Positions 5,550-61,915 of a DNA stretch of 64,000 nucleotides are shown here, in pieces (position 1 is the stretch's first letter; every line of letters starts with the position of its first letter). Where the stretch lies: contig JANSYQ010000004.1 in the NCBI GenBank assembly GCA_024742305.1, positions 124,001-188,000 of the forward strand, written 5' to 3'. A program made the position numbers and the translations under genes. Origin of the DNA: a bacterium. Lineage in GTDB: Bacteria; Bacteroidota; Bacteroidia; Flavobacteriales_D; Crocinitomicaceae. The notes below the pieces were generated by a model that saw only the letters and a program-made list of their open reading frames with translations, searched no databases and had not been told where the DNA came from.

Positions 5550-5575
5550 TGCCTTATTGTTAATTCGTTCTTATT

Positions 5576-32562: not shown

Positions 32563-32609
32563 CCTGACTCATAATCAGGTGGTCCCTGGTTCGAGCCCAG
32601 GTGGGACCA
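32563..32609 (+). other. tRNA(CAU) 3' fragment, probable attR
   Basis: The sequence folds as the 3' part of a tRNA: anticodon stem CCTGA/TCAGG around CTCATAA (anticodon CAT), variable loop, T stem-loop CCTGG-TTCGAGC-CCAGG, and the 3' acceptor strand TGGGACC plus discriminator A. The matching 5' acceptor (GGTCCCA) and D arm are absent upstream. This is what remains when an element integrates into the 3' half of a tRNA gene and brings its own copy of that half. Because the fragment lies in plus orientation, the element lies to the left, where the integrase is. The other att copy is not in this window. Confidence 0.8.
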
Positions 32610-32614
32610 CAGAT

Positions 32615-40574: not shown

Positions 40575-40612
40575 CCAAGGGATATCCCTTGGTGATTCAC
40601 GGGATATCCCGT
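40575..40612. promoter_or_regulatory. Paired GGGATATCCC palindromes upstream of the secretion operon
   Basis: CCAAGGGATATCCCTTGG (40575-40592) and ACGGGATATCCCGT (40599-40612) are perfect palindromes sharing the core GGGATATCCC. Their centres are 22 bp apart, about two helical turns, so they face the same side of DNA. They end 2 bp before a -33 TTG. The same pair with the same spacing occurs at 53143-53178. This is a strong candidate operator. Confidence 0.8.
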
Positions 40613-40613
40613 A

Positions 40614-40644
40614 TTGACACGCGTGTTTTTCCTTCTGAATTTTG
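40614..40644 (+). promoter_or_regulatory. Candidate promoter of the secretion operon
   Basis: -33 TTG at 40614-40616, 20 bp, then -7 GAATTTTG (40637-40644), one mismatch to the Bacteroidota TAnnTTTG consensus. It lies 50 bp upstream of the start at 40696. The palindromes abut the -33 element. Confidence 0.65.
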
Positions 40645-40695
40645 TAAAGATGGAATGTGCATACTGCCATTTCTATCAAAAAAACGGACCAAATT

Positions 40696-41541
40696 ATGAA
40701 ATACGCAGTATTCGTACTGGGGCTTCTTGCGGCCTCGTATGTCAATGCGCAGGACCACTTGAAGGACTTCTCACTGAAGCGCTCTCTAAAACAAGACGGA
40801 CTGCATTTGCAATTCATGGTATTGGACGCCGATAAAAAAGGTGTCCGTCATCATCAACCCAGTAAATTTTATTATTGGACAAAGGCACAGCACGTACGCG
40901 CTACGCAAGGTGCGTCTTCAGGATTGCTGTTGCATGGTCTTTTCGAAGCGTTTTATCCGGACAAACAGCTGGCGCAAAAAGGAAGCTATAAAAAGGGATT
41001 AAAACACGGCACGTGGAAATATTGGCACGAAGATGGAACTTTTCAACGGGTTGAGAAGTGGAGCCATGGCGAGTTATCAGGCAAGCAACTGTTTTACGAT
41101 GAGCAAGGACATCTTTCTCGCACAGAATGGATCCGAGGAACGATAAAGAAACGCGTACAAACCGATAGCATCATTCACTGGAAGGCGTTCGACAGAAAAA
41201 CAATCATTTTACTAGACTCGAACGGAAGAAAAACGGAAGTACAGCATTTTAAAAATGGTGTGTTGCATGGGGTGCAAAAAACCTTTGCTGATGGTAAAGT
41301 AGAATCGAAACAACGCTACAAAAACGGCGAGTTAATCGAGAAGGAATCCAAAAAAGATGAAGAAGTGACATCCACTTCCGAAGCCACGAACGAAGAAAAA
41401 GAACCCGGTAAGCTGAAGCAACTTTGGCAGAATATTTTCAAAAAGGATAAGAAGGAGAAAACGAAGCAAGAAAAGGAGACAAAGGAAGAGAAAAAGGGAC
41501 TTTTTAATCGAAAAAAGAAAGAGGAGGGTGAAGAAGGCTAA
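40696..41541 (+). CDS. Secreted MORN-repeat protein heading the secretion operon
   Basis: 281 aa from ATG 40696, chosen over an upstream frame start (40657) because it gives a signal peptide (MKYAVFVLGLLAASYVNAQ). The middle (about 95-225) has MORN_2-type repeats (GSYKKGLKHGTWKYWHEDGT, then E-L-S-G-K-Q-L-F-Y-D-E, and F-K-N-G-V-L-H-G). The last 60 residues are a Lys/Glu-rich charged tail. Such proteins are common in Bacteroidota envelopes; their roles are unclear. It overlaps the next gene by 14 bp. Its place as first gene of the operon suggests a link with the machine. Confidence 0.7.
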   Translation: MKYAVFVLGLLAASYVNAQDHLKDFSLKRSLKQDGLHLQFMVLDADKKGVRHHQPSKFYYWTKAQHVRATQGASSGLLLHGLFEAFYPDKQLAQKGSYKKGLKHGTWKYWHEDGTFQRVEKWSHGELSGKQLFYDEQGHLSRTEWIRGTIKKRVQTDSIIHWKAFDRKTIILLDSNGRKTEVQHFKNGVLHGVQKTFADGKVESKQRYKNGELIEKESKKDEEVTSTSEATNEEKEPGKLKQLWQNIFKKDKKEKTKQEKETKEEKKGLFNRKKKEEGEEG

Positions 41542-42766
41542 TCAGCGACATATCATCCCCGCATCAGCTTTAGGCTACGCTATATCATTCCTACTACTGG
41601 TTGGACTGTTTACTTCTGGTGTGCTCTTTATTACAAGTACCCACAAGCGCATTGAAGCACATTTCGTAGGGCAGGAATATTTGCTTTTCGACAACTATAC
41701 AGGAATTATGTTTGGTGCCTCCACAGAAAGTGCCGGCGTCTATCAACTTCATCACCCTAGCGGCGACTCTAGCGACATAGTCGTCAAGAATTGGGGAATG
41801 TTAAAAAGCACTGTGGTTTCTACGCGCAACAAACATCGTGTAGTGAAACGAGAGGCGCTGACAATGCAGGAAACGGATGCTATTTATCCTTGCTTGTACA
41901 TGCCCGATCAAAAAAGAAAAATTGCTCTTGCTGGCGAAACACGCTTAGAGGGAAAAGTATATGCATCGGAACGCGCACTGACACGTGCCAACATTTATCG
42001 TAAACCACTGAAAGCTGATAAACTAATTTACGGAAAACTGTATAAGAGTGAGCGCTATCTTCCTCCCTTACGAGCTGATATTGCTAAAAGTACTCTCTCA
42101 ACGTTATTGGAGGATGTCACAGTCATGGAAGAGCTGCCGAAGGATTCCACCTTTTCGTTTAGTGAAAAATCCACTTTGTATAGAAGCAATGAGGGAATCG
42201 AAGTAACGCATAGGTACCAAGGCAATCTAATTCTGCATAGCTTGCAGGAAATTTTGGTTCGTTCCAGCGCCAGCCTTGAGCACGTTATTCTTCACGCCCC
42301 AAGGGTCATTTTTGAAAAAGGATTTAAAGGAAAAGTTCAAGTGCTTGCTACGGAGCAAATTTTGTGTGAGGAAGAAGTTCAACTCGATTATCCTTCAGCT
42401 TTGATGTTGTACGAAAAGCGACCCGGACAGGATCAAAGTCGTGTAACCCTCATGAAAAACGCTAGAGTTTTGGGCGGAATTTTACTCACTTCTGAAAATC
42501 CTAACTTCCGAAAACCAGTCTTCCTAGAGGTCCTTGATGCCACGGTTGGGGGATTGATCTACAATCAAGGTGAATCAGAAATTAGAGGAGAAGTCATTGG
42601 GAGTCTCTACACAAACAAATTAGTTGCCCATGCCGGTGGCGGTGTATACGGAGGACACTTGGTAGATGCCATCATCAGTACAAAACAACTACCGGAAAAC
42701 TTCATCATGCCAAATTGGCTTAAGGAAAGCAAAATCACAAAACCCGTGTTAATCACATGCATTTGA
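41528..42766 (+). CDS. Pseudopilin-like protein without Glu5, GspK position
   Basis: 412 aa, GTG start overlapping the previous gene. The N-terminus K-K-A-N-Q-R-H-I-I-P-A followed by SALGYAISFLLLVGLF resembles a prepilin leader with cleavage after Pro-Ala. The +5 residue is Tyr rather than Glu, as in the tip pseudopilin GspK. The soluble part is strand-rich with possible beta-helix repeats (about 230-330), unlike classical GspK, so identity with GspK is not certain. Gene order (before two small pseudopilins, F, G, E, D) supports a tip or adaptor pseudopilin role. Confidence 0.55.
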   Translation: MKKANQRHIIPASALGYAISFLLLVGLFTSGVLFITSTHKRIEAHFVGQEYLLFDNYTGIMFGASTESAGVYQLHHPSGDSSDIVVKNWGMLKSTVVSTRNKHRVVKREALTMQETDAIYPCLYMPDQKRKIALAGETRLEGKVYASERALTRANIYRKPLKADKLIYGKLYKSERYLPPLRADIAKSTLSTLLEDVTVMEELPKDSTFSFSEKSTLYRSNEGIEVTHRYQGNLILHSLQEILVRSSASLEHVILHAPRVIFEKGFKGKVQVLATEQILCEEEVQLDYPSALMLYEKRPGQDQSRVTLMKNARVLGGILLTSENPNFRKPVFLEVLDATVGGLIYNQGESEIRGEVIGSLYTNKLVAHAGGGVYGGHLVDAIISTKQLPENFIMPNWLKESKITKPVLITCI

Positions 42767-43080
42767 AAAAGCACATACCAGCTTCCAGTATTACTGAAGT
42801 GGTGATTGCCATCACGGTAATTGCAATTTGTATTGGCATTTCTTCCATGATTTTCACGCGTTCCATGCACGTGACAACTGATTTTGAGAGTGTGAAAATG
42901 CAAACCGAACTTCAATCTGACTTGTGGAAGCAAATGGTATTAAACCAGCAAGCAGAAGCAGAAGAGCCCATCACGGTTGAAGAAGACAATGACCTATTGA
43001 ATGACTCATTGAAAGTGTTGATCTTTCGCGGATTAAATGATCGAGTGCTTTGGCAACAACATTGGTTGAAGAATGAATAA
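42757..43080 (+). CDS. Minor pseudopilin (GspI/PilV-like)
   Basis: 107 aa. Leader MHLKKHIPA, then SSITEVVIAITVIAICIGIS with Glu at +5 of the mature protein, the class III prepilin signature, with Ala rather than Gly at -1. The short, acidic C-terminal part fits a minor pseudopilin. It overlaps the previous gene by 10 bp and the next by 8 bp. Assignment to GspI rather than GspH rests on position. Confidence 0.65.
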   Translation: MHLKKHIPASSITEVVIAITVIAICIGISSMIFTRSMHVTTDFESVKMQTELQSDLWKQMVLNQQAEAEEPITVEEDNDLLNDSLKVLIFRGLNDRVLWQQHWLKNE

Positions 43081-43555
43081 AGGGAAACAACATACCGTAC
43101 CAGCCTTCACCATTTTTGAAGTAACCGTTGTTTTAGCGATTATGAGTGTGGTGGTTTCCATGGTAGCATTTTCTACGCAAAGTCTCTTTAAGCAAATGAA
43201 AGTTACCGAGGATATTCATGCCGAGCTAAACAACTTCTACAAGGTGCGAAGCATGCTATGGTACGATTGCGTTATGGCCGATTCCATAACGTTTCAAGAG
43301 AACGAGTTTTTAGCTTTTACCAATGGAGTCCCAGTGCAGTATCGCGTGGAAGAGGATCGCTTGTATCGGAACCAAGACGGACAAGATCGAGATTTGAACT
43401 TGGATATTCTTAGTCTTGAAAAAATGGATGTGGACGCGGGTTCTGATATCATTTTAACCTTCGATTGGAAAGGTGAACCGTTGGAGTGGCGTTTTTTCAA
43501 CCTGCCCAATTTAGCAGATGGTGTTAACCAATATTTTGACACAAGAGATGGCTGA
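43073..43555 (+). CDS. Minor pseudopilin (GspJ/GspH-like)
   Basis: 160 aa. Leader MNKGKQHTVPA, then FTIFEVTVVLAIMSVVVSMV with Glu at +5. The C-terminal domain is strand-rich and acidic (ILTFDWKGEPLEWRFFNL). It overlaps both neighbours. It should be processed by the prepilin peptidase encoded downstream and join the pseudopilus. Confidence 0.7.
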   Translation: MNKGKQHTVPAFTIFEVTVVLAIMSVVVSMVAFSTQSLFKQMKVTEDIHAELNNFYKVRSMLWYDCVMADSITFQENEFLAFTNGVPVQYRVEEDRLYRNQDGQDRDLNLDILSLEKMDVDAGSDIILTFDWKGEPLEWRFFNLPNLADGVNQYFDTRDG

Positions 43556-44630
43556 AGATAAAAAGAACATATTTCAGCGAGAGATCTCTTTGGGCAAAGC
43601 CTTCAAGGATAAATCAAAAGAGGAATTCTACAAAGAATTCGCCTCCTTGATGGATAGTGGTATTGACATTCAGCGTACCATGCAGATTCTTATAGAAGAA
43701 CAGAAATCCAAACGAATCAAGCCTATTTTGGAAGGTATTGCAGAACGTTTGGTACTTGGAAGCTCACTTGCAGAAGCCTTGGAATCTTCGGGTCATTTCA
43801 CATCGTATGAATACCAAAGTATTCGTATTGGTGAAGAAACGGGTCGCCTTCCGAAAATTTTGAAACATCTAGCGGATTATTACACGGATAAAGTAAAACT
43901 CCGACGACAGCTCGTGAGTGTATTTACCTACCCAGCTTTTGTCATTCTCATTACCATTGGTGTGCTGTACTTCATGCTGAATAGCGTGGTTCCCATGTTT
44001 GAAGATGTATTCGCACAATTTGGTCAGGAACTGCCATATCTCACTAAAAAAATCATCGCGCTATCCCAAAACTTCGGTACGTTCATGACCTATTTCCTCG
44101 GTGGACTGACCCTCATTATAGTCTATTGTTACACGCAGCGCAAGGAAGTTTGGTTCCGAGACTTGTCCTCGAAAATAGTCTTGAGAATTCCAGTGTTTGG
44201 CATCTTAATGCGAAAAATTTACCTCGCTAGGACTTGCCAAAGTTTATCGCTTTTACTCTCCTCTCGAACACCACTAGTAACTTCTTTGGAACTCGTTCGA
44301 GAAATGATAGGCTTTTACCCTGTGGAAAAGGCGCTCAGCGAAATTCGATTGGATATTATGAAAGGGGAGTCTTTACATACCGGACTAGCGCGTTTCAAAA
44401 TTTTTGACCAGCGATTGATTTCACTCACAAAGATTGCAGAAGAAACCAATCAACTGGATGCCACCTTCGAGCGCTTGTCGGGGCAGTATCAAGAAGACAT
44501 AGAATTCAGAACAAAACTAATAGGGACAATTATAGAGCCCTTGATTATCATATTAATTGGAGGAATCGTTGGTGTCATCATGGTTTCGATGTACCTCCCG
44601 ATGTTTAACCTAAGTAATGTTATTCAGTAA
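43548..44630 (+). CDS. gspF: Inner-membrane platform protein GspF
   Basis: 360 aa from ATG 43548 (MAEDKKNIFQRE), which overlaps the previous stop by 8 bp like the rest of the operon; a frame from 43518 would overlap more. It has two T2SSF domains: residues about 25-145 (FYKEFASLMDSGIDIQRTMQ, L-A-E-A-L-E-S-S-G-H-F) and about 220-345 (LARTCQSLSLLLSSRTPLVT, then G-E-S-L-H-T-G-L), with three membrane segments. It forms the platform that works with GspE to extend the pseudopilus. The stop overlaps the ATG at 44630 (TAATG). Confidence 0.9.
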   Translation: MAEDKKNIFQREISLGKAFKDKSKEEFYKEFASLMDSGIDIQRTMQILIEEQKSKRIKPILEGIAERLVLGSSLAEALESSGHFTSYEYQSIRIGEETGRLPKILKHLADYYTDKVKLRRQLVSVFTYPAFVILITIGVLYFMLNSVVPMFEDVFAQFGQELPYLTKKIIALSQNFGTFMTYFLGGLTLIIVYCYTQRKEVWFRDLSSKIVLRIPVFGILMRKIYLARTCQSLSLLLSSRTPLVTSLELVREMIGFYPVEKALSEIRLDIMKGESLHTGLARFKIFDQRLISLTKIAEETNQLDATFERLSGQYQEDIEFRTKLIGTIIEPLIIILIGGIVGVIMVSMYLPMFNLSNVIQ

Positions 44631-44707
44631 TGAGAAAATGGAAGACAAAATGGATTAAAACGGACATCGAGCCTGTCGAGATGGAAGTAACATCACGTTC
44701 ACAATGC

Positions 44708-45109
44708 ATGAAAAAAGGTCGTATCCCTGCCTTCTCCCTCGCTGAAATACTCATCGTATTGGCCATCATGGGAATTCTGATCATGTTGGTTGTCCCGAAC
44801 AATGCGGGAGTTGCCACACGATCTAAAGCGCTCGAGGCGCAGCAGGAATTAAAAATGATTCACACGCTTCAAGAGGCCTACAGAATGCAGTACTCCAAAT
44901 ATTCAATGGATTTAACACAGTTGAATTACATCCCGCACAAATTAGTCACCGCGGGAGGAACTGCTAATTACGAAATCACGGTTTTGGAAGCAAGTACCAC
45001 TGGGTACAAGGCGAAAGCCGAAGCCGTAGTTGATTTCAATGGAGATGGAAAAAAGAATATATGGGAAATTGACCAAGGTGGCGTGGTCAAAGAAGTTCAA
45101 CCGGATTAG
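44708..45109 (+). CDS. gspG: Major pseudopilin GspG-like
   Basis: 133 aa from ATG 44708. Leader MKKGRIPA, then FSLAEILIVLAIMGILIMLV with Glu at +5. The C-terminus has a D-F-N-G-D-G-K-K-N calcium-loop-like motif, common in major pseudopilins. An ATG at 44630 overlaps the gspF stop and would add 26 residues, but that would bury the leader, and the added stretch contains a REP-like hairpin (44665-44683), so I prefer 44708. It is likely the main subunit of the pseudopilus. Confidence 0.8.
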   Translation: MKKGRIPAFSLAEILIVLAIMGILIMLVVPNNAGVATRSKALEAQQELKMIHTLQEAYRMQYSKYSMDLTQLNYIPHKLVTAGGTANYEITVLEASTTGYKAKAEAVVDFNGDGKKNIWEIDQGGVVKEVQPD

Positions 45110-45139
45110 ATAAATATTTAGTAAAAAGATGTGGAAGGC

Positions 45140-45220
45140 CTTCGAGTATGTCGAGAAGCCGCTATCAAACAAAAAAATATTCAAAAAGGCTAGTGCACTT
45201 CGACAGTCTCAGCGTACTAG
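45140..45220. repeat. REP-like palindromic repeats after gspG
   Basis: CTTCGAGTATGTCGAGAAG (45140-45158) matches CATCGAGCCTGTCGAGATG (44665-44683) with compensatory changes in the stem (CTTC/GAAG versus CATC/GATG). A related inverted copy, CTTCGACAGTCTCAGC (45198-45213), is flanked by CTAGT/ACTAG. This is the pattern of REP elements widespread in Bacteroidota genomes. The 122-bp gap is the largest inside the operon. Confidence 0.6.
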
Positions 45221-45231
45221 AGATTTTATAA

Positions 45232-45702
45232 ATGATTTACATACTCTACATATTATTTGGTATAACCCTGTTTCAGGACGTGAAGTATCGGGGAGTTCAC
45301 TGGTCCGTTTTCCTCTTATTGCTTGCAAGTGCGGCGATTTATGGGAGTGGACTGGCTTGGCGGGACATTGGATTTAATCTACTGTTTCTTGTCGGACTAA
45401 TGTCTGCTCTTACGTTGTATCTGTCCTTGAAACAGGGTCGCATTGTGAATATCACCCAAGGCTATTTTAGCTGGGGTGATATTCTTTTCCTTCTAGTGCT
45501 TACGCCCCTGTTCGAATGGCGTATGTACATGATGGTGTTCATTTTCGGAACCTTGGGGGTGCTAGTTCTTCACATTTTGGCACACCTTTTCAAACCGCAA
45601 AAAACAGTCCCTTACGCTGGTTATATGGCGGCAATCACGGGAGTTATTTTATTCTTTCAACCTCAGGTAGAAGCCTATCTAAAAACACTCGCATGGCAAT
45701 AG
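45232..45702 (+). CDS. Prepilin peptidase, catalytic domain only
   Basis: 156 aa, five or six membrane segments. It has the two Asp of the A24 aspartic protease family: Asp16 in F-Q-D-V-K-Y-R-G and Asp83 in F-S-W-G-D-I-L-F. The N-terminal methyltransferase domain of full-length PilD is absent, as in short TadV/FlaK-type enzymes. The second motif has W-G-D rather than G-x-G-D, a small deviation. It should cut the four pseudopilins of this operon after Pro-Ala. It overlaps gspE by 10 bp. Confidence 0.8.
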   Translation: MIYILYILFGITLFQDVKYRGVHWSVFLLLLASAAIYGSGLAWRDIGFNLLFLVGLMSALTLYLSLKQGRIVNITQGYFSWGDILFLLVLTPLFEWRMYMMVFIFGTLGVLVLHILAHLFKPQKTVPYAGYMAAITGVILFFQPQVEAYLKTLAWQ

Positions 45703-47102
45703 TCGAAGAAATCCATATCGCCCCGGAGATTCAGCAGATTATCCCGTCGGACATTGCGTGGCACTATCGTGTGGTACCGCATTCTCGGAGCGAAAACGCC
45801 GTGACGTTTTTTATTGATGAGGAAGGAAACAAACTGTTGGTTGAAGAGGAGTTGAATGCCTTGTTGGGTATACAGATTGAAACCAAGCCGTTGCCAACAC
45901 ACGATTTGCAGCGATTGCTAGGAAGGTATTATCGGAACACCAACTCAGAAAATGACAAGATCACTTTTGATGCCAATACGGATTTCGTTGATCGTATTAT
46001 CCAAGAAGCGAATCGCTTGGGGAGTAGTGATATCCACATCGAAATTTTTGAAGAGAAAGCGCGTGTGCGTATTCGTATTGATGGGAATCTAATTGAACGC
46101 TACGCAATTGATCGCGCCGACTACCCCGAGCTTGTTAACAAAATCAAGATTCGCGCAAATTTGGATATTTCCGAAAAGCGCCTTCCACAAGACGGTCGAA
46201 TTCAATACCAAGACTTTGATATTCGTGTTTCTATTTTACCAACACTTCACGGAGAGAAGATTGTAATGCGTATCCTCGGACACGATGCTTCTTCCATCTC
46301 GATTGATAATCTTGGATTTACGGATCAAGACAAATCGTACTATCTCGAAGGCATAAAAAAACCGAACGGAATCATTCTAATTTCGGGCCCAACGGGTTCG
46401 GGTAAAACGACCACGCTGTACGCCACCCTCAAGCTACTGAATGATGAAAAACGCAACATCATGACCGTGGAGGATCCCGTGGAGTACACCTTGAAAGGTA
46501 TCAATCAAGTGCAGTTAAAAGAGTCTATTGGGTTGACATTTCAGAGTGCCTTGCGTTCCTTCCTTAGACAAGATCCGGATGTGATTATGCTCGGTGAGAT
46601 TCGCGATGGTGAAACGGCTCAGATGGCGATTCGTGCTGCCTTGACGGGACACTTAGTTTTGTCCACCATTCACACGAATTCAGCGTGGGGAACCATCTCA
46701 AGGTTAATCGATATGGGCGTGCCTTCCTTCTTGTTGGCGAATACCATTTCTACCTCGGTAGCACAACGATTGGTTCGGAAATTATGCACGAATTGTGCGG
46801 TAGAATCGCCCTTAACCGAAAAGGATTGGTCGTATACAATTCCATTCGATCAACCGGAAAAACATGTTACACCCGTCGGATGCGATAAATGCCATTATAC
46901 CGGTTACAAAGGTCGTGTGGCGCTCTATGAAATCATCCCAATTGACCAGGAATTGGCGGCGTGTATCAAAACCAACGATCACGATATCACAAATAAATTG
47001 AAACAACGAAACATACAATCGCTGTCGCAGCGAGCGTATCAAATATTCATGGATGGCAAAACCTCGCTGGAGGAAGTTTATCCACTTTTAACAGGATTCT
47101 GA
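45693..47102 (+). CDS. gspE: Secretion ATPase GspE
   Basis: 469 aa from ATG 45693; a frame open to 45516 would overlap most of the peptidase gene. N-terminal N1E-like part (1-80), then the ATPase: Walker A GPTGSGKT (232-239), Asp box and Walker B D-P-D-V-I-M-L-G-E-I-R-D, His box (L-S-T-I-H-T-N-S-A). A tetra-Cys zinc element (C-T-N-C about 365-368, C-D-K-C about 396-399) is characteristic of GspE/PilB. It drives pseudopilus assembly. No retraction ATPase PilT is present in the operon. Confidence 0.95.
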   Translation: MAIVEEIHIAPEIQQIIPSDIAWHYRVVPHSRSENAVTFFIDEEGNKLLVEEELNALLGIQIETKPLPTHDLQRLLGRYYRNTNSENDKITFDANTDFVDRIIQEANRLGSSDIHIEIFEEKARVRIRIDGNLIERYAIDRADYPELVNKIKIRANLDISEKRLPQDGRIQYQDFDIRVSILPTLHGEKIVMRILGHDASSISIDNLGFTDQDKSYYLEGIKKPNGIILISGPTGSGKTTTLYATLKLLNDEKRNIMTVEDPVEYTLKGINQVQLKESIGLTFQSALRSFLRQDPDVIMLGEIRDGETAQMAIRAALTGHLVLSTIHTNSAWGTISRLIDMGVPSFLLANTISTSVAQRLVRKLCTNCAVESPLTEKDWSYTIPFDQPEKHVTPVGCDKCHYTGYKGRVALYEIIPIDQELAACIKTNDHDITNKLKQRNIQSLSQRAYQIFMDGKTSLEEVYPLLTGF

Positions 47103-49006
47103 TGAAAAGAGTACATTATCTATTATCGGTGCTTTTTGTGGCAATAACATTCGGGTTATCTGCGCAAAGTTTTTCCGAGGAGAGCCTACGGGCTCAACTT
47201 GATACCATGGCGAAGACGCACCCCGGCCTCAACAATGAGGTGCAATTGAACGTTAGTAGTTTGCCACTCGCCGAACTTGTCAATTCCATCGCCTTTGAAA
47301 ACAACTTGAACATCAGCGTTGATCCGAATATCAATCAACTGATCTCGTACAATTTTTACGATGCTCAAGTGAAAGATGTTTTGGTGTTTTTGTACCTCAA
47401 CTTTGAAGTCGAGTATGAATTCGTAGGCAGTATTATCTCCATCGAAATTAGAAAGGAGAAAGTAAAGCCAGTAGTCGTGGAGCCACCTAAGCCTGTAGAT
47501 GTGAAGTATAATCAGGCCAACAAATTCTTGTCCCTCAACCTCAAAAACGATACGCTTTGGAAAGTTACAGAGGCAATTACTCAACAATCGGGAATCAATT
47601 TTGTTGTGGATCCGGAAGTACGTGAACAAGCCGTAAATGCGTATTTGCTGAATCGACCGAGTGATCAAGTATTAGACATGTTCGCAAAATCAAACAATCT
47701 TCTACTTATTCCTGAAGGCGACTACTTCCGTTTGGCCAAAAGCGATCAACCCAATCCAAAACAACCCACGAATAATCAACCTCGAGCTGGAAGCTATCAA
47801 TCCAACTCCAAAAACGGCGATTTTGTTCTTACTACCACAGATGTAGGAACCATTGATGTTTTTGCAAGAAATGTGGACCTCGGTACCTTGGTGCAAGCGG
47901 CGGCAGAAGAAACAGGCGTTCATTATGTTTTGTACTCTAATCTGCAGGGCAAAGTCAATATGGATATGGAAGATATGCGATTCGATGAATTGATTCGCAC
48001 CGCTTTTGAAGGAACACCGTATAGCTTGAAAGTGCAAGACGACATTTACGTGATGGGAGAATCCAATACGGGTACTTTGAGAACTACGCGCTTGATTCGT
48101 TTGGAGAACAGAACCATTGAGTCGGTCCAAACAGCCATTCCTGCAGATTTGATTGCTGGGGTAGAAGTGAAAGAGTTTGAAGAACTCAATGGACTGATTG
48201 TTACTGGAACAAGAGATCAAATTAGCATTCTAACCGAGTTTATCTCTCAAATTGACGTAGTGGTTCCCATGGTGCAAATTGACGTTATGCTGTTGACCAC
48301 CGAGAAGTCTTCAACTGTTTCAACAGGAATTACCGCAGGAATTTCAGACACGCCAACAGAGACTTTGGGAACTGTTTTTCCTGCGCCAAATTTGACGCTA
48401 GGCTCCGAGTCCATCAACAATATTTTGAATGCTATTTCAGGTTTTGGATTGGTGAACCTCGGACAGGTCACCGAGAATTTTTACGTAACGCTAGACGCTA
48501 TGGAGTCCAACAACATGCTCGATATTCAAAGCACACCAAAAATATCCACGTTGAACGGTCACGAAGCGACGATTTCTATCGGTCGAACAACCTATTACGA
48601 GCAGGTTCAAGTCAATGTACAAACTTCTGTCACGCAACAAGGGGTGTTACAATCAAGACAGTGGCAATCTATTGATGCCAACCTTTCTGTGTCTATCAAA
48701 CCTTTCGTCAGTGCGGATGAACACGTGACGCTAACAATTACTGTTGAGCAAGACGATTTTGACGGTTTCATTGCTGAGGGAGCCCCGCCGAATATCGCTA
48801 CTCAGACCTTCGAGTCTATGGTTCGTGTAAAGAATGGAGAAATGATTTTGTTAGGAGGATTGGAAGACAAGCGCCGGAACGATTCAGGCACCGGTGTTCC
48901 TATTCTCTCTAGAATTCCGGCGTTAAAGTGGTTGTTTAGCGGTAGAACAAAGTCTAGAGAAAAATCGAAGTTACACGTTTTAATTCGCCCGGTAGTCACC
49001 TATTAA
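47102..49006 (+). CDS. gspD: Outer-membrane secretin GspD
   Basis: 634 aa. Signal peptide (about 1-22, VLFVAITFGLSAQ), N-terminal N-domains (about 45-130, 140-215 and 245-380, the first two linked by a short Pro/Lys-rich stretch), then the secretin domain (about 385-634) ending V-R-V-K-N-G-E-M-I-L-L-G-G-L, then VPILSRIPALKWLFSGR. It should form the outer-membrane pore of the machine. The start overlaps the gspE stop (TGATG), so the two are coupled. Confidence 0.95.
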   Translation: MKRVHYLLSVLFVAITFGLSAQSFSEESLRAQLDTMAKTHPGLNNEVQLNVSSLPLAELVNSIAFENNLNISVDPNINQLISYNFYDAQVKDVLVFLYLNFEVEYEFVGSIISIEIRKEKVKPVVVEPPKPVDVKYNQANKFLSLNLKNDTLWKVTEAITQQSGINFVVDPEVREQAVNAYLLNRPSDQVLDMFAKSNNLLLIPEGDYFRLAKSDQPNPKQPTNNQPRAGSYQSNSKNGDFVLTTTDVGTIDVFARNVDLGTLVQAAAEETGVHYVLYSNLQGKVNMDMEDMRFDELIRTAFEGTPYSLKVQDDIYVMGESNTGTLRTTRLIRLENRTIESVQTAIPADLIAGVEVKEFEELNGLIVTGTRDQISILTEFISQIDVVVPMVQIDVMLLTTEKSSTVSTGITAGISDTPTETLGTVFPAPNLTLGSESINNILNAISGFGLVNLGQVTENFYVTLDAMESNNMLDIQSTPKISTLNGHEATISIGRTTYYEQVQVNVQTSVTQQGVLQSRQWQSIDANLSVSIKPFVSADEHVTLTITVEQDDFDGFIAEGAPPNIATQTFESMVRVKNGEMILLGGLEDKRRNDSGTGVPILSRIPALKWLFSGRTKSREKSKLHVLIRPVVTY

Positions 49007-50127
49007 TGAAGTGGTTCAAAAAAATATGGTCCCCTAAGTCTTTGGTGGTAGTTTTTGTCCGCCTGCAAGACGGTGAAATGGAATTTACTGCTCAATTGGC
49101 AGGCAGACGCACCAAAGATTTCGGCTTGTACGAAGATTTAGAATCCTTGGTAAATTCTGTTGGCAAGTCACGTGGCTATCATGTGCACGTTCAAGGACAG
49201 GGAGTTTTAACGCGCACTGTGGAATCCTTGCCGAATTACAGAGAACAGCTAGTGATTGGTGGCAACTCGAATGATTTTTATTTTACATCCTACAACGATG
49301 AAGTACAGGTTGCTGCTTCCTTTGTTCGCAGGTCGGTTCTAAAAGATGCCTTGACACTTTTCGAGGAGAGTAAGTGGCACCTGTTAGGCATTAGTTGTGG
49401 TGAAATTCCATTGTGCGCAGCTGATGAAAACGGGCATTACCATGGGGAGCATCGCATCGAAATCAACGAGGGAAAAATCGTCAAGGTCGAGCGAAACCCT
49501 GGCGAGCCAAGATCTAAATATCGAAATGAAATTGCCTCGGTAATTGTTCAGAATTACGCTCAAGAAGAAGCTGCGCTGGAATTGGAACAGCAAACAACTG
49601 CAATTGAAAACTTCAAAGAGTTTACGCAATTCAAAGTGCTCGGGCTTGGATTGTTGATGGGGTTATTGCTCTCATTGTTGGGAAATTATTTCTATCAAAA
49701 TTATTTGAATCAAAGCATTGCAGATTTGGAAATGGACCTGACGTTGAGTAATGAAAATCTTTCTCTTTTGGACCGTTTGGATCAAGAAAAAATGCGAAAA
49801 GAGCAGTTGGTTGCTAATGCTGGGGTGACTTCCCCTAAGTTTTTATCCTACTATTTGGATGAAATTGGAACCACGGTTCCTAAAACTATCGACCTTCAGG
49901 AAATGTATTTGTTTCCGCTCGATGGAAAATTGAAAAACAAACAAAAAGTCAGCATTCAATCGGATAAGATTGTGATTCATGGTACAAGTCCGGATAATGT
50001 CACCCTAGACGACTGGATTGAATACATGGATCGATTTGCATGGGTGAAAGCAATAGAGTTGTTGAATTATAGCAAGGTCTCTGATAAACAAGCGGAGTTT
50101 AAGCTGGAAATAACCATAATGGCATGA
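49006..50127 (+). CDS. GspL/PilM-PilN-like assembly platform protein
   Basis: 373 aa. A cytoplasmic N-terminal region (about 1-205) lies before one membrane segment (about 208-232) and a periplasmic coiled coil and ferredoxin-like region (about 235-373, with KIVIHGTSPDNVTLDDWIEY), the layout of GspL or a fused PilM-PilN. The N-terminal actin-like fold is diverged: no nucleotide motif is obvious. It should link GspE to the periplasmic parts. It shares one base with the gspD stop. Confidence 0.65.
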   Translation: MKWFKKIWSPKSLVVVFVRLQDGEMEFTAQLAGRRTKDFGLYEDLESLVNSVGKSRGYHVHVQGQGVLTRTVESLPNYREQLVIGGNSNDFYFTSYNDEVQVAASFVRRSVLKDALTLFEESKWHLLGISCGEIPLCAADENGHYHGEHRIEINEGKIVKVERNPGEPRSKYRNEIASVIVQNYAQEEAALELEQQTTAIENFKEFTQFKVLGLGLLMGLLLSLLGNYFYQNYLNQSIADLEMDLTLSNENLSLLDRLDQEKMRKEQLVANAGVTSPKFLSYYLDEIGTTVPKTIDLQEMYLFPLDGKLKNKQKVSIQSDKIVIHGTSPDNVTLDDWIEYMDRFAWVKAIELLNYSKVSDKQAEFKLEITIMA

Positions 50128-50651
50128 CATTTTTTGATGGATATAGCTACAAAGTGAAGAACCGCGCTATGATTGTGATGGCAGTTTTATTGATTGCCGT
50201 TGCATACAAGCGAGCCTTCAGTGTAACTATTGAAACGAGAGGATACCGAAGTGAGCTGGAGCAAAAATTAGTTCGAGCAGAAAGCGCCGAACAGGAAATT
50301 AGACAGAAACAGTTTGAAATTGCAAGGCTGAATCGCTACCTCGGTGAAGAGAATAATACCGTAGAAAAAGTACAGCAAGGGTTTCTCAACTTCTTTGCGC
50401 AAAATGCAGAAGATATTTTGGTGCATCAAATTGATGAGGTGCTGAACTTCAAACATCCCGATTTTGCCATCAATACGCACTGTATCGTCATTAAGGGCGG
50501 ATTTTTAGAGACCCTCAAATTTTTGTACGCTTTGGAGAAAGATTTCGCACTGGCAAAGATTCTCAATATCTCTTTCGAGTTCCGAAAAGGAAACAATCAG
50601 GAGGATCCAGCGCTGTTTACCACATTATTAATTCAAAATTATTTACGATGA
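50124..50651 (+). CDS. GspM/PilO-like protein
   Basis: 175 aa. A short cytoplasmic N-terminus, one membrane segment (about 15-30), a coiled coil (about 40-80), then a small alpha/beta domain (about 110-175), the layout of GspM/PilO. It overlaps the previous gene by ATGA. It should pair with the GspL-like protein in the inner-membrane platform. Sequence similarity by eye is weak; topology and position carry the call. Confidence 0.6.
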   Translation: MTFFDGYSYKVKNRAMIVMAVLLIAVAYKRAFSVTIETRGYRSELEQKLVRAESAEQEIRQKQFEIARLNRYLGEENNTVEKVQQGFLNFFAQNAEDILVHQIDEVLNFKHPDFAINTHCIVIKGGFLETLKFLYALEKDFALAKILNISFEFRKGNNQEDPALFTTLLIQNYLR

Positions 50652-51601
50652 GATATCTGATTTTATTGATAGCATGTTCATCCCTTTTGACAGGTTGCGA
50701 GAAAATTATCGCAGAGGACATTACGGGGCAAGTCCCAGTTTTGATACTTCCTGCAAGTGGTAGTATTCTAACAGAAAACCAAGTTCAGTTCAAGTGGGAG
50801 GAAATGGAAGGTGCTTCAAAGTATCATCTTATGGTGGTGACACCTAGTTTTGCCAACCCGCAGGAGTACACCTTGGATACGATTGTCAGCGGGACTGAAT
50901 TTTCAGCGACTCTCGACTCGAATTCTTATGAATTGAAGTTAGTCGCTTTGAACGGTGGTTATCGTTCAGACACTCTCGGACCTATTCCTTTTGAAGTGAA
51001 CCTTGCTGGGGGAGCCAACTTCGTTACCTTACTATCACCCGTTGATGGAGCGGCAGACAATGCCAATTTCCCCGGAGTTTTTACGTGGCAATCACTCTCG
51101 GGGGCAACGAGCTATGAATTTGCGTTAAAACAAGGTACCGACTTCACCATTGGCACTCTCGTCGATTTCGCGAATAATATCGTTACCAATAGTACAACGA
51201 CGCCAGCTACATTAACGGAGGGAGAATACATTTGGGGAGTTAAGGCCTATTTTGGTTCTGGGGAAACTGCCTACACCACCCATACTTTTGTCATTGACAC
51301 TACCACGCCAAATCAACCAGTGTTGGGTCAGCCATTAGATGCGAGTACGCAAACTGCTGGAACCATCACTTTTGAATGGAATAATGGAACAGATGGAGGC
51401 TCGGTACAAACTCCGGTTACATCAAGATTGGAAATTGCGAATAACACGGGATTCACCAATGCAGTTCAGGTAGAATTGGTTGGAGATACTCATGATGAAA
51501 CCATAAATACATCAGACACTTATTATTGGCGTGTAATTAATATAGATGAAGCCGGAAACGAATCTATTGCTTCCGACACCTTTAGTTTCACCATAAATTA
51601 A
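50648..51601 (+). CDS. Lipoprotein with fibronectin-like domains
   Basis: 317 aa. Lipoprotein signal with lipobox L-L-T-G-C (Cys17). About three Fn3- or Big-like beta domains follow (for example F-K-W-E-E-M-E-G-A-S-K-Y-H-L, F-T-W-Q-S-L-S-G-A-T-S-Y-E-F and FEWNNGTDGGS), a repeat type seen in Bacteroidota surface lipoproteins. It overlaps the preceding gene by 4 bp and lies 2 bp before the GspC-like gene. It may be an outer-membrane partner of the secretin (pilotin-like role) or a surface lipoprotein; neither is shown. Confidence 0.65.
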   Translation: MRYLILLIACSSLLTGCEKIIAEDITGQVPVLILPASGSILTENQVQFKWEEMEGASKYHLMVVTPSFANPQEYTLDTIVSGTEFSATLDSNSYELKLVALNGGYRSDTLGPIPFEVNLAGGANFVTLLSPVDGAADNANFPGVFTWQSLSGATSYEFALKQGTDFTIGTLVDFANNIVTNSTTTPATLTEGEYIWGVKAYFGSGETAYTTHTFVIDTTTPNQPVLGQPLDASTQTAGTITFEWNNGTDGGSVQTPVTSRLEIANNTGFTNAVQVELVGDTHDETINTSDTYYWRVINIDEAGNESIASDTFSFTIN

Positions 51602-51603
51602 AC

Positions 51604-52098
51604 ATGAAAAGTAAGGCACTCACATACGTAATGTTGGTGGTGGTTGGTATTATTTGGTACCAAGTTTTTTTCCGTGTGAAAAATAATTTGCTAGGGGAGG
51701 ATGACACCATTCCGAATCCGAATCAATCCTTTGAGCAAGTCAATGCTATGGCACGTGATACGGTTGATCTCCAGGTGAACTACAGAGATCCATTTCGCTA
51801 TGAGAAAATGACAACAAATTTGCCCTTACTTTCTGAATCGCCCAAGCCTCCAGCGAATCCAAGAGCGGCAATGAACAGAAACCCAAAACCTCAATTTGCG
51901 TGGCCGAATATTTCCTATCATGGACTGATTCGAAACAGAAAATCCTCCAAACCTTTGGCTCTGATCCGTGTGGACGGATTGGTTTACAACTTACGCCTTG
52001 GCGATGAAATCTTTAATAGTATTTATATCAAATCCATTGAACCGGAAATGTTGACAATTAAGTACAAGAAGCTGGAGAAAACGGTAGAGCGGAAGTGA
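51604..52098 (+). CDS. GspC/PilP-like protein
   Basis: 164 aa. One N-terminal membrane segment (about 5-23), a Pro/Asn-rich linker, and a C-terminal homology-region domain (about 100-155: NISYHGLIRNRKSSKPLALI, then G-D-E-I-F-N-S-I-Y-I-K-S-I), the small beta domain that in GspC and PilP contacts the secretin N0 domain. It is the last gene of the operon and ends before a bidirectional terminator. Confidence 0.7.
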   Translation: MKSKALTYVMLVVVGIIWYQVFFRVKNNLLGEDDTIPNPNQSFEQVNAMARDTVDLQVNYRDPFRYEKMTTNLPLLSESPKPPANPRAAMNRNPKPQFAWPNISYHGLIRNRKSSKPLALIRVDGLVYNLRLGDEIFNSIYIKSIEPEMLTIKYKKLEKTVERK

Positions 52099-52114
52099 GG
52101 GGCGTCTGAATGAA

Positions 52115-52140
52115 AAAGAGTGATGATTCCACCACTCTTT
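52115..52140. terminator. Bidirectional terminator after the secretion operon
   Basis: AAAGAGTG (52115-52122) pairs with CACTCTTT (52133-52140), with a loop of 10 nt. On the minus strand it is followed by a run of T residues. It sits between convergent genes ending at 52098 and 52155 and can serve both. Confidence 0.75.
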
Positions 52141-52154
52141 CGCTCTAGATTTTT

Positions 52155-52910
52155 CTATCGTAACTTCTTCGCATCTTCAAGCCACTGAATGGCTTTTTTT
52201 GCTTCTTCAATGGGAGTTCGGTGCTTGTATGTTCCATCGTCGATTGTATCTTCAATATCGTCGATGTACTCCTTGAGTTTCTTCACATCCTCATCATATT
52301 CTTCCATTGCTTCTGTATCAGAACTTGATGGTTTGTCGATGTGCCTATCCGGATATGACTTTGATTGCGCCAATTTCTTTTTGACCTCCTGAAAATGCTC
52401 ATTTATCTCAAGTCGTTTTTCCAATAGTGCTTTCCACGCTTCTAGACCATCGTCGATTTTTTCATCCATCTCCTCAATCTCTTCGGTGATGTCTTTCAAT
52501 TCTTCCTCAAGCTCTTTCACTTTCGACTTCAAGCTATTGGTTGTAGAAGAGGAGCTGCCATCATCATCTTCAAGTTTTTCTCTTGCATCCTCTAAGTCTT
52601 CTTTCATTTCCTTTTGAATACGCAATGAGTTCTTCTTACTGTCGTGCAATTGTCTTCCCTTGAATCCGGCGCAAGCGCTAAAGGCACGATCTTTCTCTCC
52701 TTGAAGGGTTCCGGCTTTACTGCGCATTGAGGAGTACGGAATGGATTTTATACCGTCTTGTGATGCGGCATATTTGAAGTCGTCAAGGTCCTGACCGAGG
52801 CCGGCAAACGAGACAGTTAGGAAAAGAAAGGCTGTTAAAAACAGTGCGTTCATAGACCTTACCCGACGGGTAGGTGCACCGCATAGGTGCGCGTTGGTGT
52901 TTGTTTTCAT
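52155..52910 (-). CDS. Secreted coiled-coil protein
   Basis: 251 aa from ATG 52910 (MKTNTNAHLCGAPTRRVRSM); the frame extends to 53066, but those residues look non-coding. An internal start (MNALFLTAFLFLTVSF) may be used, since the signal peptide sits there. The mature protein is long charged coiled coil (about 90-250, Glu/Lys/Asp-rich). No enzyme motif. It is convergent with the secretion operon and divergent from the RHS-like operon across the second palindrome pair (53143-53178), so it could share that regulator. Confidence 0.6.
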   Translation of the reverse strand: MKTNTNAHLCGAPTRRVRSMNALFLTAFLFLTVSFAGLGQDLDDFKYAASQDGIKSIPYSSMRSKAGTLQGEKDRAFSACAGFKGRQLHDSKKNSLRIQKEMKEDLEDAREKLEDDDGSSSSTTNSLKSKVKELEEELKDITEEIEEMDEKIDDGLEAWKALLEKRLEINEHFQEVKKKLAQSKSYPDRHIDKPSSSDTEAMEEYDEDVKKLKEYIDDIEDTIDDGTYKHRTPIEEAKKAIQWLEDAKKLR

Positions 52911-53142
52911 GAATAATTGATTTAGGTTATGAGTTTGCGGTAGTAGTCGCTTGCTCATGCAGAAGGTACGAATAAAATTCAAAGTGATGGCTCTAAATGG
53001 CTGAAAATAAATTAATTCGATGGTGTTCTTAAATGCAATACGAAATATACGCCCCTTTTTCTTCACTTTCTCCTACACTGATATTCAATCGAAGCCGAAC
53101 AATAGCTTTATTAAGAGGTCCCCTCTATTCTTAAGTTAAAAC

Positions 53143-53178
53143 ACGGGATATCCCCTATAAAAACACGGGATATCCCGT
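53143..53178. promoter_or_regulatory. Paired GGGATATCCC palindromes upstream of the RHS-like operon
   Basis: ACGGGATATCCCCT (53143-53156, one mismatch from a perfect 14-bp palindrome) and ACGGGATATCCCGT (53165-53178). Centres are 22 bp apart, as in the pair at 40575-40612, and the 14-bp right-hand site is identical in both. A -33 TTG follows 2 bp later in both. The shared geometry supports one regulator acting on both promoters. Confidence 0.85.
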
Positions 53179-53179
53179 A

Positions 53180-53210
53180 TTGCATCCATCTAGGTCAGGG
53201 TCTACCTTTG
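53180..53210 (+). promoter_or_regulatory. Candidate promoter of the RHS-like operon
   Basis: -33 TTG at 53180-53182, 20 bp, then a -7 element TACCTTTG (53203-53210) matching TAnnTTTG fully. It is 39 bp upstream of the start at 53249. The spacing is identical to that of the promoter at 40614-40644. Confidence 0.75.
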
Positions 53211-53248: not shown

Positions 53249-53689
53249 ATGACCACTATGATCGGAAGATTAGGCAAGAAAATGTCGAATCAAGCTATTG
53301 TGATAATTGGGTTGATGTTTTTAAGCAGCGGAGTAAATGCTCAATTGGATACAGCATCTGTAAGTTCAGTTAGTTTCGCTCAAGAAACGGTAACTGACTC
53401 TTTAACATTAGTAACGGACACATTAGATATTATGAATGTTGAGGTATTCATGGATGATATTGACTTCTTGGGAGAGGTGCTAGTTACAGTATATGACCAA
53501 GCCACCGGTTATCCACTTCAAATGGTAAAGCAAACCAAATCAGAATTGGAACTCAACGATCTAATCATAGGCTCATTTGCCAAAATTGAAATATTTGGAT
53601 TAGAACCGAATGTTGGATTGTACAACATAGATGTTCAAGTTCGAAACTTTCAAGGAGGAAATTTACCATTACTCTCAGCTCAATATTAA
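53249..53689 (+). CDS. Small secreted protein heading the RHS-like operon
   Basis: 146 aa. Signal peptide (about 1-32, ending SSGVNAQ). The mature part has a Ser/Thr-rich stretch, then a strand-rich domain of about 85 residues (DFLGEVLVTVYDQATGYPLQ, then IGSFAKIEIFGLEPNVGLYN). No family recognised. First gene after the palindrome-type promoter, 9 bp before the DNRLRE gene. Confidence 0.6.
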   Translation: MTTMIGRLGKKMSNQAIVIIGLMFLSSGVNAQLDTASVSSVSFAQETVTDSLTLVTDTLDIMNVEVFMDDIDFLGEVLVTVYDQATGYPLQMVKQTKSELELNDLIIGSFAKIEIFGLEPNVGLYNIDVQVRNFQGGNLPLLSAQY

Positions 53690-53698
53690 AACTTAGTT

Positions 53699-55507
53699 AT
53701 GAATAGATTTTTTAATCTGGTATGCTGCGGCGTATTGATTGCCCTGTCGCATTCATTGCACGCGCAGTTGTCCACGGCAAGTCTACAAGCAACTGCGGAT
53801 TCGTATACAAATACTCGCTTACCAACCACACCGAACGGCAGTGATCCTACGATGAAATCAGGGACAGAGTATACAATTGGACCACGAGGAGGTTCACTTC
53901 AATATCATCAACGAGTATACGTCAAATTTAATATCGCTGGTAGCATCCCAACAAACGCGATTATTTATAGCGCTGAGTTGCGACTAACGATGTCAGGTAG
54001 TTCCACTGGATCTTTCGATTGGAAAACAAAAATGATCAAGTCTACTTGGACAGAAGGAGGGGTTACAGCAAACAATCAGCCGACCATATCCAATTTAACA
54101 TCAGACGTAGTAACTACAACTCCTGTAGCTAGCGGAACGCAAACAATCGATGTCACGGATATGGTACAACGCATGTCGTATTATCCTTCTTCCAATCATG
54201 GTTGGTGCGTTCAAGTTAGTAATGAGGCTGCTGCGTCGAATACCGGTGCTTTATTTCATACAAGGGAGGCAATGAACTTTTTATTACGCCCCGTATTATA
54301 TATTGAATATTATTTACCTGTTACTCTTTCAAATGTCGTTGTAACCCATGAGTCGGGAGTCGGAGCATCAGATGGTGGTGTAGATTATAATCATACATCA
54401 GTAGGGTCAACAACTCATACTTATCAGTGGTACAATGGAGCGGGTCAATTGATGCTTGGCGAAACAAACAAGCAACTTACAAATGTACCTTATGGATGGT
54501 ACGGTGTAGAAATTACAGGGGTCAACACTGGAGAGAAAGCCTACTTCGGGTTTTTAGTTGGAACCGAGTGCGAAGAAGTCACCATTACCTATACAACCAG
54601 TCCAAATTTTACAAGCAACAGTTTTATATACGATCGGGTTATTTCGGGGGGTATTGACTATCGAGATGTCAACTATGGAAACACAGCGAACTTCAGAACA
54701 GATAACTGGAATAATTCACCTTGGACCGATATCAAAAGTTACCTCGATTTCAATACATGGATGGATGATGCATTTACTGTCAATCAAGCAGATTTACAGA
54801 TCAATGGCTGGGCGCACTGGAATAGTGGGACAACCAATGAGTCCCAGTTTAAAATGGTCAATGATTATTGGAATGAGAATGTAATTACTTGGAATGCCAG
54901 TCCTAATGTCTCCTCAAGCGCGATTACTACCATCCCGAATACAACATCCTCCAATCAAAACATGACTGTAGACATGATTGACGCATGGAATGATTGGAAA
55001 ACCAACAATTTGGCAAATTATGGAATTGAGTTCGGGTTACAGTATTTCGATGACAACTTTAATACGCGTCAGATGTACTACTCGCCAAATGCAAGCTCAA
55101 ATAGACCGAGTTGGACATTTAAATTATCGTTGATTGACAACTTCAGTTTCTCTTATTGCCACCCTGATTGGCCGCCTCACATCGCTGTTCAAAAAACACT
55201 AGATGGTAGTTACACCCAAACAGTAGGAGGAGTATTACATTTTCAATACGACGAGGAGTATAAAGTTGACTTAAGTGAGTTTCTAAAGTTTAACATTTAC
55301 AATGAGTCTAGAAATATTGTCGCATCAGCAGATGGGGCAGGTGGAACCACAGGGAGTATATCTCCATTAACCTACTCATTCGACGATAACAGATATGAAT
55401 TAGACCTATCTGTAGTCCCAGGATTACAAAGTGATACATTTTTGGTTCTTGAAGTATTTACTGCCAAAGGACAGAAGAGATACCTCAAAATTTTATACAA
55501 AGCATAG
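53699..55507 (+). CDS. Secreted DNRLRE-type protein
   Basis: 602 aa with a signal peptide (1-21). Two DNRLRE/CBM96-like beta domains: about 28-195 (ATADSYTNTRLPTTPNGSDP, then YVKFNIAGSIP, then AELRLTMSG) and about 300-450 (Y-L-D-F-N-T-W-M, W-N-E-N-V-I-T-W-N-A-S). In other proteins such domains are often attached to RHS or wall-associated proteins. The C-terminus (LVLEVFTAKGQKRYLKILYK) is strand-like, but I cannot call a T9SS sorting domain. It lies 10 bp before the giant RHS-like gene and probably forms a secreted complex with it. Confidence 0.7.
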   Translation: MNRFFNLVCCGVLIALSHSLHAQLSTASLQATADSYTNTRLPTTPNGSDPTMKSGTEYTIGPRGGSLQYHQRVYVKFNIAGSIPTNAIIYSAELRLTMSGSSTGSFDWKTKMIKSTWTEGGVTANNQPTISNLTSDVVTTTPVASGTQTIDVTDMVQRMSYYPSSNHGWCVQVSNEAAASNTGALFHTREAMNFLLRPVLYIEYYLPVTLSNVVVTHESGVGASDGGVDYNHTSVGSTTHTYQWYNGAGQLMLGETNKQLTNVPYGWYGVEITGVNTGEKAYFGFLVGTECEEVTITYTTSPNFTSNSFIYDRVISGGIDYRDVNYGNTANFRTDNWNNSPWTDIKSYLDFNTWMDDAFTVNQADLQINGWAHWNSGTTNESQFKMVNDYWNENVITWNASPNVSSSAITTIPNTTSSNQNMTVDMIDAWNDWKTNNLANYGIEFGLQYFDDNFNTRQMYYSPNASSNRPSWTFKLSLIDNFSFSYCHPDWPPHIAVQKTLDGSYTQTVGGVLHFQYDEEYKVDLSEFLKFNIYNESRNIVASADGAGGTTGSISPLTYSFDDNRYELDLSVVPGLQSDTFLVLEVFTAKGQKRYLKILYKA

Positions 55508-55518
55508 AATTGAATAAG

Positions 55519-61905: not shown

Positions 61906-61915
61906 TAAGAGCAAA

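What the first reader, a model, noticed from the sequence alone, without database searches (positions are those of the whole stretch)
40575..53210. Identical paired-palindrome promoters in front of a T2SS-like operon and an RHS-like operon
Seen directly: at 40575-40644 and 53143-53210 there are two GGGATATCCC-core palindromes with centres 22 bp apart, then TTG starting 2 bp after the second site, then 20 bp, then a -7 element. The right-hand 14-bp site is identical in both places. Two such matches 12.6 kb apart with the same geometry are unlikely by chance. Inference: one regulator binds both as a pair of dimers on one DNA face and switches the secretion machine and the giant RHS-like proteins together. 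I noticed no further copies in the window.
Basis: partly seen in the sequence, partly recalled or inferred. Interest (0 to 1): 0.8.

Follow-up and report, generated by a model that had tools for sequence, protein, structure and literature searches.

The report
Paired operators of a secretion–RHS regulon
Matching pairs of DNA sites sit in front of a bacterial secretion machine and of giant RHS-type proteins, and several related species keep the same layout with different letters, which suggests that one switch controls both and that the machine may export those proteins.

Summary
In detail: two GGGATATCCC-core palindromes, centres 22 bp apart, precede both the T2SS-like operon and the RHS operon, with TTG and the −7 element at the same offsets. 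In the 4.09-Mb genome I found four such promoters, all of this system: the two in the window, a second r1–r2 operon (C24, spacing 24), and a 3272-aa RHS gene whose pair an IS1595-type element has split. In four congeners (G064, G162, G175, G181) the letters differ (about CGTANNNNTACG), but paired palindromes 22–34 bp apart again precede RHS-side promoters, and in three of them the T2SS promoter too. Six other T2SS-bearing congeners showed no such pair at the promoters I could read. The giant RHS family occurs in 7 of 34 congeners, all T2SS-positive. So co-regulation is supported; the layout is kept, the letters are not. The LytTR proteins as binders are not supported. Two-fold symmetric sites, gene linkage and one unusual recognition-helix residue favour a NarL/FixJ-type response regulator (window 34251–34895, −) acting on paired sites as DevR does. 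That step, and RHS proteins as T2SS cargo, are inferred.

The parts
40577..40590 (+). distal palindrome of the T2SS promoter (AAGGGATATCCCTT), centre about -65.5
40599..40612 (+). proximal palindrome of the T2SS promoter (ACGGGATATCCCGT), centre about -43.5
40614..40644 (+). core promoter: TTG 40614-40616, 20 nt, GAATTTTG 40637-40644
   Evidence: consensus from PMC9723704
40696..52098 (+). T2SS-like operon g1-g13: MORN_2 protein, unknown 412 aa, small ORF, pseudopilin, GspF, pseudopilin, ORF 45232-45702, GspE, secretin GspD, PilN-like, two unknown, GspC-like
   Evidence: Pfam (T2SSF, T2SSE, Secretin above cut-off; T2SSC, PilN, N_methyl below cut-off); NCBIfam; gene order kept in relatives
53143..53156 (+). 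distal palindrome of the RHS-operon promoter (ACGGGATATCCCCT)
53165..53178 (+). proximal palindrome of the RHS-operon promoter (ACGGGATATCCCGT)
53180..53210 (+). core promoter: TTG 53180-53182, 20 nt, TACCTTTG 53203-53210
53249..61905 (+). RHS operon in the window: r1 (53249-53689), r2 with CBM96/DNRLRE domain (53699-55507), r3 2131 aa (55510-61905)
61835..64000 (+). r4, ORF open to the contig end (at least 2332 aa beyond and inside the window; true start uncertain, overlaps the end of r3), RHS-associated core
34251..34895 (-). NarL/FixJ-type response regulator, proposed binder of the pairs
33214..34071 (-). membrane protein with C-terminal LuxR-type HTH, rival binder
37909..40446 (-).
35402..37912 (-). 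second Reg_prop/Y_Y_Y/LytTR protein

Best explanation
The pairs are operators of one regulator, most likely an activator, that controls a T2SS-like machine together with giant RHS-type secreted proteins. Shown by sequence: four promoters of this genome carry the pair (one with 24-bp spacing, one split by an IS), all belonging to this system, and the layout recurs with other letters at promoters of the same system in four congeners. Inferred: the binder is a NarL/FixJ-type response regulator, most likely that at 34251-34895; one dimer sits on each palindrome, two dimers on one face of the DNA (-43.5 and -65.5), and the proximal one, next to the TTG element, helps RNA polymerase, as described for DevR. 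Also inferred: the RHS-type proteins are cargo of the machine.
For: Four promoters, all of this system; distance from the proximal core to the -7 box is 26 nt in all four, read (one -7 box, C13, is weak). Co-occurring paired palindromes with other letters in G064, G162, G175, G181; matrices trained without the test genome put these promoters at the top of the sequence held and pointed to the G064 giant-RHS promoter, not used in training. Giant RHS in 7 of 34 genomes, all 7 T2SS-positive. NarL-type regulator linked to the T2SS or RHS locus in 5 of 5 operator-bearing genomes, in none of the 6 T2SS loci of genomes without operators. Residue after H in the recognition helix: A in the window regulator, R in 9 and K in 1 of 10 others aligned. 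DevR: closely packed sites, proximal one overlapping -35, cooperative occupancy (PMC3029386, abstract and passages).
Against: No pair at the readable promoters of six other T2SS-bearing congeners, nor at the T2SS promoter of G162. CGTAT-type pairs also occur away from this system (G038, G144, G147, window 15648), and a GGGA-type pair with the same core promoter precedes an unrelated short ORF in G099. The window regulator is only 33% identical to the linked regulators of G064, G162 and G175 and is not their best match in this genome (C9 copy, 40%); the genome has 25 matches of this class. For G181 the linked regulator is at the RHS locus, a locus that I could not inspect in every operator-negative genome. 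The helix argument rests on one genome.
Confidence: 0.6

Rival explanations
1. The two Reg_prop/Y_Y_Y/LytTR proteins divergent from the T2SS operon bind the pairs, each 22-bp repeat being read as one half of a LytTR direct repeat.
For: They lie next to the T2SS promoter; 22-bp repetition fits LytTR spacing (9-bp repeats 10-13 bp apart, PMC11347149); LytTR-type regulators, named by eye, lie beside the T2SS locus also in G099 and G175.
Against: Each site is a two-fold palindrome, which a direct-repeat reader does not need. G099, whose T2SS-RHS locus carries a LytTR regulator, has no pair there. tblastn with the window LytTR proteins found none in the T2SS loci of G064, G162 and G181, but it also missed the LytTR-type regulator of G175.
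Confidence: 0.13
2. A membrane-anchored LuxR-type HTH protein binds the pairs: that at 33214-34071, or its relative beside the split RHS promoter (L013:451-1308).
For: Same HTH superfamily; such proteins lie beside the T2SS locus and beside the giant RHS gene here, and beside the giant RHS gene in G162.
Against: No match in G064, G175 or G181 at E up to 0.001, three genomes with operators; that search also missed the G162 C20 copy found, so absence is not certain.
Confidence: 0.17
3. The pairs bind a repressor rather than an activator.
For: Sites next to the TTG element could also hinder polymerase; CoxC, a LytTR-type repressor, has its operator at -35 (PMC11347149).
Against: The sites end upstream of the core promoter and leave the -7 box free; the C24 promoter lacks TTG but keeps the site and -7 box, as an activator-dependent promoter would.
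Confidence: 0.12
4. Coincidence or a mobile repeat without regulatory role.
For: An IS1595-type element does sit in one of the sites.
Against: Expected number of exact pairs in the genome is 1e-6; the element interrupts the pair and does not carry it; fixed distance to the -7 box; layout recurs in relatives.
Confidence: 0.03

Closest known systems
DevR/DosR paired Dev boxes (NarL-family response regulator)
   Same: Two closely packed symmetric sites, the proximal one at the -35 region, proposed cooperative dimers (PMC3029386, passages)
   Different: Other letters, other core promoter (TTG/TAnnTTTG), other targets; regulator not shown to bind
Canonical LytTR operators (AgrA, RcoM, CoxC)
   Same: Repeats about two helical turns apart near -35
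   Different: 9-bp direct repeats (PMC11347149, passage), not two-fold palindromes
Putative T2SS of Cytophaga hutchinsonii and other Bacteroidetes
   Same: Bacteroidota T2SS-like cluster with D, E, F, pseudopilins and divergent inner-membrane parts (PMC5553014, passages)
   Different: There linked to cellulose use; the term Rhs does not occur in its main text; here linked to RHS-type genes and to a paired operator

Membership tests
NarL/FixJ-type paired operator (DevR-like) | two-fold symmetric sites, repeated in phase, proximal one at the -35 region | tested here: met
NarL/FixJ-type paired operator (DevR-like) | a NarL-type regulator encoded with the targets | tested here: met
   orthology between genomes is uncertain
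NarL/FixJ-type paired operator (DevR-like) | binding and cooperative activation by that regulator | not testable with these tools
   needs EMSA, footprint, expression data
LytTR operator | pair of 9-bp direct repeats, no need for two-fold symmetry | tested here: inconclusive
   repetition at 22 bp is present, but each unit is a near-perfect palindrome; consensus from PMC11347149
Type II secretion system | ATPase E, platform F, secretin D, pseudopilins | tested here: met
   T2SSE, T2SSF, Secretin above Pfam cut-off; NCBIfam GspD/GspE matches are below their cut-offs and PilB scores above GspE
Type II secretion system | GspC-type clamp protein | tested here: inconclusive
   T2SSC E 2e-4, 21.6 bits, below cut-off 27
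RHS protein | RHS repeats or RHS-associated core | tested here: met
   3272-aa protein: PF05593 and TIGR03696 above cut-off; r4: TIGR03696 above cut-off
RHS protein (the 2131-aa r3 alone) | RHS repeats or RHS-associated core | tested here: not met
   no RHS family at the limits used
IS1595-family insertion | IS1595 transposase, inverted ends, short target duplication | tested here: met
   (198.5 bits, cut-off 75); similar inverted ends, 8-bp GGATATCC on both sides; contig join inferred from a 141-nt identical overlap

The most novel reading that the evidence does not exclude
In a Bacteroidota genus a T2SS-like machine is dedicated to exporting giant RHS-type proteins, and machine and cargo form one regulon whose paired operator has changed its letters between species together with the recognition helix of its own response regulator.
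Probability: 0.35. Interest if true: 0.72.

Novelty: new variant of a known kind. Interest (0 to 1): 0.58.

Why it matters
It ties a poorly understood Bacteroidota T2SS to a candidate cargo class, giant RHS-type proteins, through shared control, neighbourhood and co-occurrence, and names an operator and a candidate regulator that can be tested directly. It is also a natural case of an operator that changes its letters while its layout and its targets stay.

Tried and rejected
Chance: rejected on the expected numbers. Scan of named genomes for GGGATNTCCC pairs at 22 bp: 64 stretches in many phyla; I read the listing only and left these 64 loci out of later scans.

Family scan: 7 of 200 genomes match with up to 3 mismatches, this one included; I read the flanks of the six others. 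Only the G099 match has ATTG and a perfect -7 box; it precedes a short ORF without a Pfam match. The idea that this ORF carries the operator as a mobile promoter was dropped because the ORF was not found in G000.

Strict palindrome-plus-promoter scan: the two window promoters and one weak site in L019; none in five shuffles of the window; the less perfect operators of relatives escape it. The four other GGGATATCCC singles of the genome (C9:51442 and C54:275043 intergenic; C52:72915 and C54:286986 inside ORFs) showed me no partner with the layout (by eye).

In one search the g1 query was translated out of frame; repeated in frame (g1 found in 10 of the 12 relative loci; L044 and L047 are cut before it). 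No structure prediction or fold search was run. Papers: PMC5553014, PMC9723704, PMC3029386 and PMC11347149 were seen as passages of find calls; every other paper only as a search listing; one search found none. The string GGGATATCCC is in 12 papers of the library; none of the 10 titles listed concerns such an operator. Searches for a T2SS-RHS link (6 papers) and a LuxR-type/T2SS link in Bacteroidetes (10 of 11 listed) showed nothing on it in titles or abstract starts; this is no proof that it is not in print.
Full report
What is there. Both pairs exist as described. In each promoter two palindromes with a GGGATATCCC core have centres 22 bp apart, the proximal one ends 1 bp before TTG, and the -7 element follows 20 nt after TTG. 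With the -7 box at -12 to -5 (PMC9723704, passage) the centres are at -65.5 and -43.5 in both. Downstream lie a T2SS-like operon of 13 ORFs and an operon r1-r2-r3-r4, in which r2 has a CBM96/DNRLRE domain and r4, which runs past the window, has an RHS-associated core. r3 itself has no RHS match.

The rest of the genome. GGGATATCCC occurs 11 times in 4.09 Mb against about 2 expected. Pairs at exactly 22 bp with up to 3 mismatches occur at three places: the two in the window and C40:141-172. C40 begins with the 5' part of an IS1595-type transposase gene and C13 begins with the whole of it; the reverse complement of the C40 start and the C13 start overlap by 141 nt at 100%. The element has similar inverted ends and an 8-bp duplication, GGATATCC, inside the palindrome. 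I infer that the pair once stood intact in front of the next gene on C13, a 3272-aa RHS protein, where GTATTGAC still follows the proximal site. On the other side a membrane LuxR-type regulator gene is divergent. A fourth promoter, C24:803 on the minus strand, has GGGATAGCCC and GGGATATCCC 24 bp apart and TATCTTTG at the same 26 nt from the proximal core, and precedes r1'-r2' (48% and 43% identical to the window proteins). Seven of the 11 single sites belong to these four promoters (two of the seven are the two copies made by the insertion); two of the other four lie inside ORFs.

Relatives. The secretin is matched at E below 1e-160 in 13 of 34 genomes of the genus, this one included; one more has a weak match. 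I fetched the loci of the 12 others; ten reach g1. In four relatives the operator letters differ, about CGTANNNNTACG, while the layout is alike. T2SS promoters: G064 AGGTATAAATACGC-22-ACGTAAAAACCCGT then ATTG; G175 AAGTATAAATACGT-22-ACGTATAAACACGT; G181 ACGTAATTCTACGT-22-ACGTGATTTTACGC; none was found in G162. RHS-side promoters: r1 in G064 (34 bp), three r1 copies in G162 (33 bp; one has an extra site 23 bp off; two of the three have near-identical upstream DNA and are not independent), r1 in G175 (33 bp); giant RHS in G162 and G175 (33 bp), G181 (22 bp) and G064 (34 bp). A second r2-type gene in G064 has a single site.

Controls and contrary results. A genus-wide exact search for CGTANNNNTAC pairs gave 18 rows, which I merge to 15 places; 7 of the 15 are at r1 or giant-RHS promoters; the reversed-pattern control gave 9 hits, so the other 8 are at chance level. 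Matrices trained on the sites of the other three genomes put the T2SS and RHS promoters at the top of the sequence held for each of the four; that sequence, 18 to 48 kb per genome, was fetched around these loci, and in G064 an unassigned pair (L042:2341) also scored high. No pair was found at the T2SS promoters of G099, G131, G144, G159, G173 or G177, at r1 of G099 or G131, or at the giant RHS of G144; G183 and G185 could not be read, their contigs being cut. CGTAT-type pairs also occur elsewhere: before an operon with a HisKA_3 kinase and a NarL-type regulator in G144, before a short promoter-and-terminator-like stretch in G038 and G147 (by eye), and in the window at 15648.

Machine and cargo. 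The giant RHS family (first 600 residues or so as query) occurs in 7 of 34 genomes, all 7 T2SS-positive (hypergeometric p 3e-4). r2 is matched at E up to 0.001 in 11 of 34 genomes, 9 of them T2SS-positive; the 6 with E below 1e-15 are all T2SS-positive. RHS-module genes lie within about 4.3 kb downstream of the last T2SS gene in G000, G099, G162, G173 and G175, with other genes between in G099 and G173, and a giant RHS gene is the second ORF beyond it, convergent, in G144. r1, r2 and the RHS-type proteins begin with signal-peptide-like stretches (by eye). That they are cargo of the machine is inference. The p-values treat genomes as independent, which they are not.

The regulator. Two LytTR proteins abut the T2SS promoter, but the canonical LytTR site is a pair of 9-bp direct repeats (PMC11347149, passage). 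NarL-type response regulators lie right after the last T2SS gene in G064, G162 and G175, directly upstream of the giant RHS gene in G181, and at window 34251-34895 here: 5 of 5 operator-bearing genomes, against 0 of 6 T2SS loci of genomes without operators (the locus of G177 ends inside the last T2SS gene, and G181 has none at its T2SS locus). The window regulator matches VraR best among solved structures, NarL and DevR also. After the H of its recognition helix stands A; it is R in 9 and K in 1 of the 10 other regulators aligned. This fits a change from CGTA to CGGG half-sites, but it is one case. The window regulator is 33% identical to the linked ones of G064, G162 and G175, the C9 copy of this genome is nearer to them (40% to G064 and G162), and the genome has 25 matches of this class. 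DevR is the closest working model: closely packed sites, the proximal one overlapping -35, cooperative occupancy (PMC3029386, abstract and passages).

Verdict. The sequence observation is confirmed and extended to a regulon of four promoters. Co-regulation of the machine and the RHS-type genes is supported by comparison; the binder is inferred to be of the NarL type rather than LytTR. I rate it a new variant of a known kind.

Noticed in passing
L013:1-150 and L016:1-950 (starts of G000 C40 and C13): IS1595-type element inserted in the palindrome of the giant-RHS promoter with an 8-bp duplication GGATATCC; it leaves a copy of the palindrome on each side.
   Followed up: yes
window 15648-15682 (-): Weaker pair of the relatives' type (ACGTATTTATACTT, 21 bp, GCGCACATATACGT) followed by ATTG and TATATTTG, before a 105-aa ORF.
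   Followed up: partly
window 20478-21326 (+) and 33214-34071 (-); G000 C40:451-1305 and C54:329012-329851: Four membrane proteins with a C-terminal LuxR-type HTH in this genome; two lie beside T2SS or RHS promoters.
   Followed up: partly
L181 about 5412-5570 (G147 C37) and L182 about 5508-5660 (G038 C5): CGTAT-type pair, 22 bp, followed by a promoter-like and then a terminator-like stretch without a long ORF in both genomes: looks like a short RNA gene, by eye.
   Followed up: no
L003, L005, L009, L010 (G129 and G080, another genus of the family): Short tandem repeats of GATATCCC-like units about 11 bp apart.
   Followed up: no
window 31109-32610: Phage-type integrase gene (31109-32407, -) next to a tRNA gene (32514-32610): possible edge of an integrated element beside the regulator genes.
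   Followed up: no
L014:1024-1059 (G099 C34, -): GGGA-type pair (ACGGGATAATCCTT, 22 bp, ACGGGATTTCCCGT) with ATTG and TAATTTTG before a short ORF of unknown family, IS1595-like transposase-type ORFs nearby by eye.
   Followed up: partly
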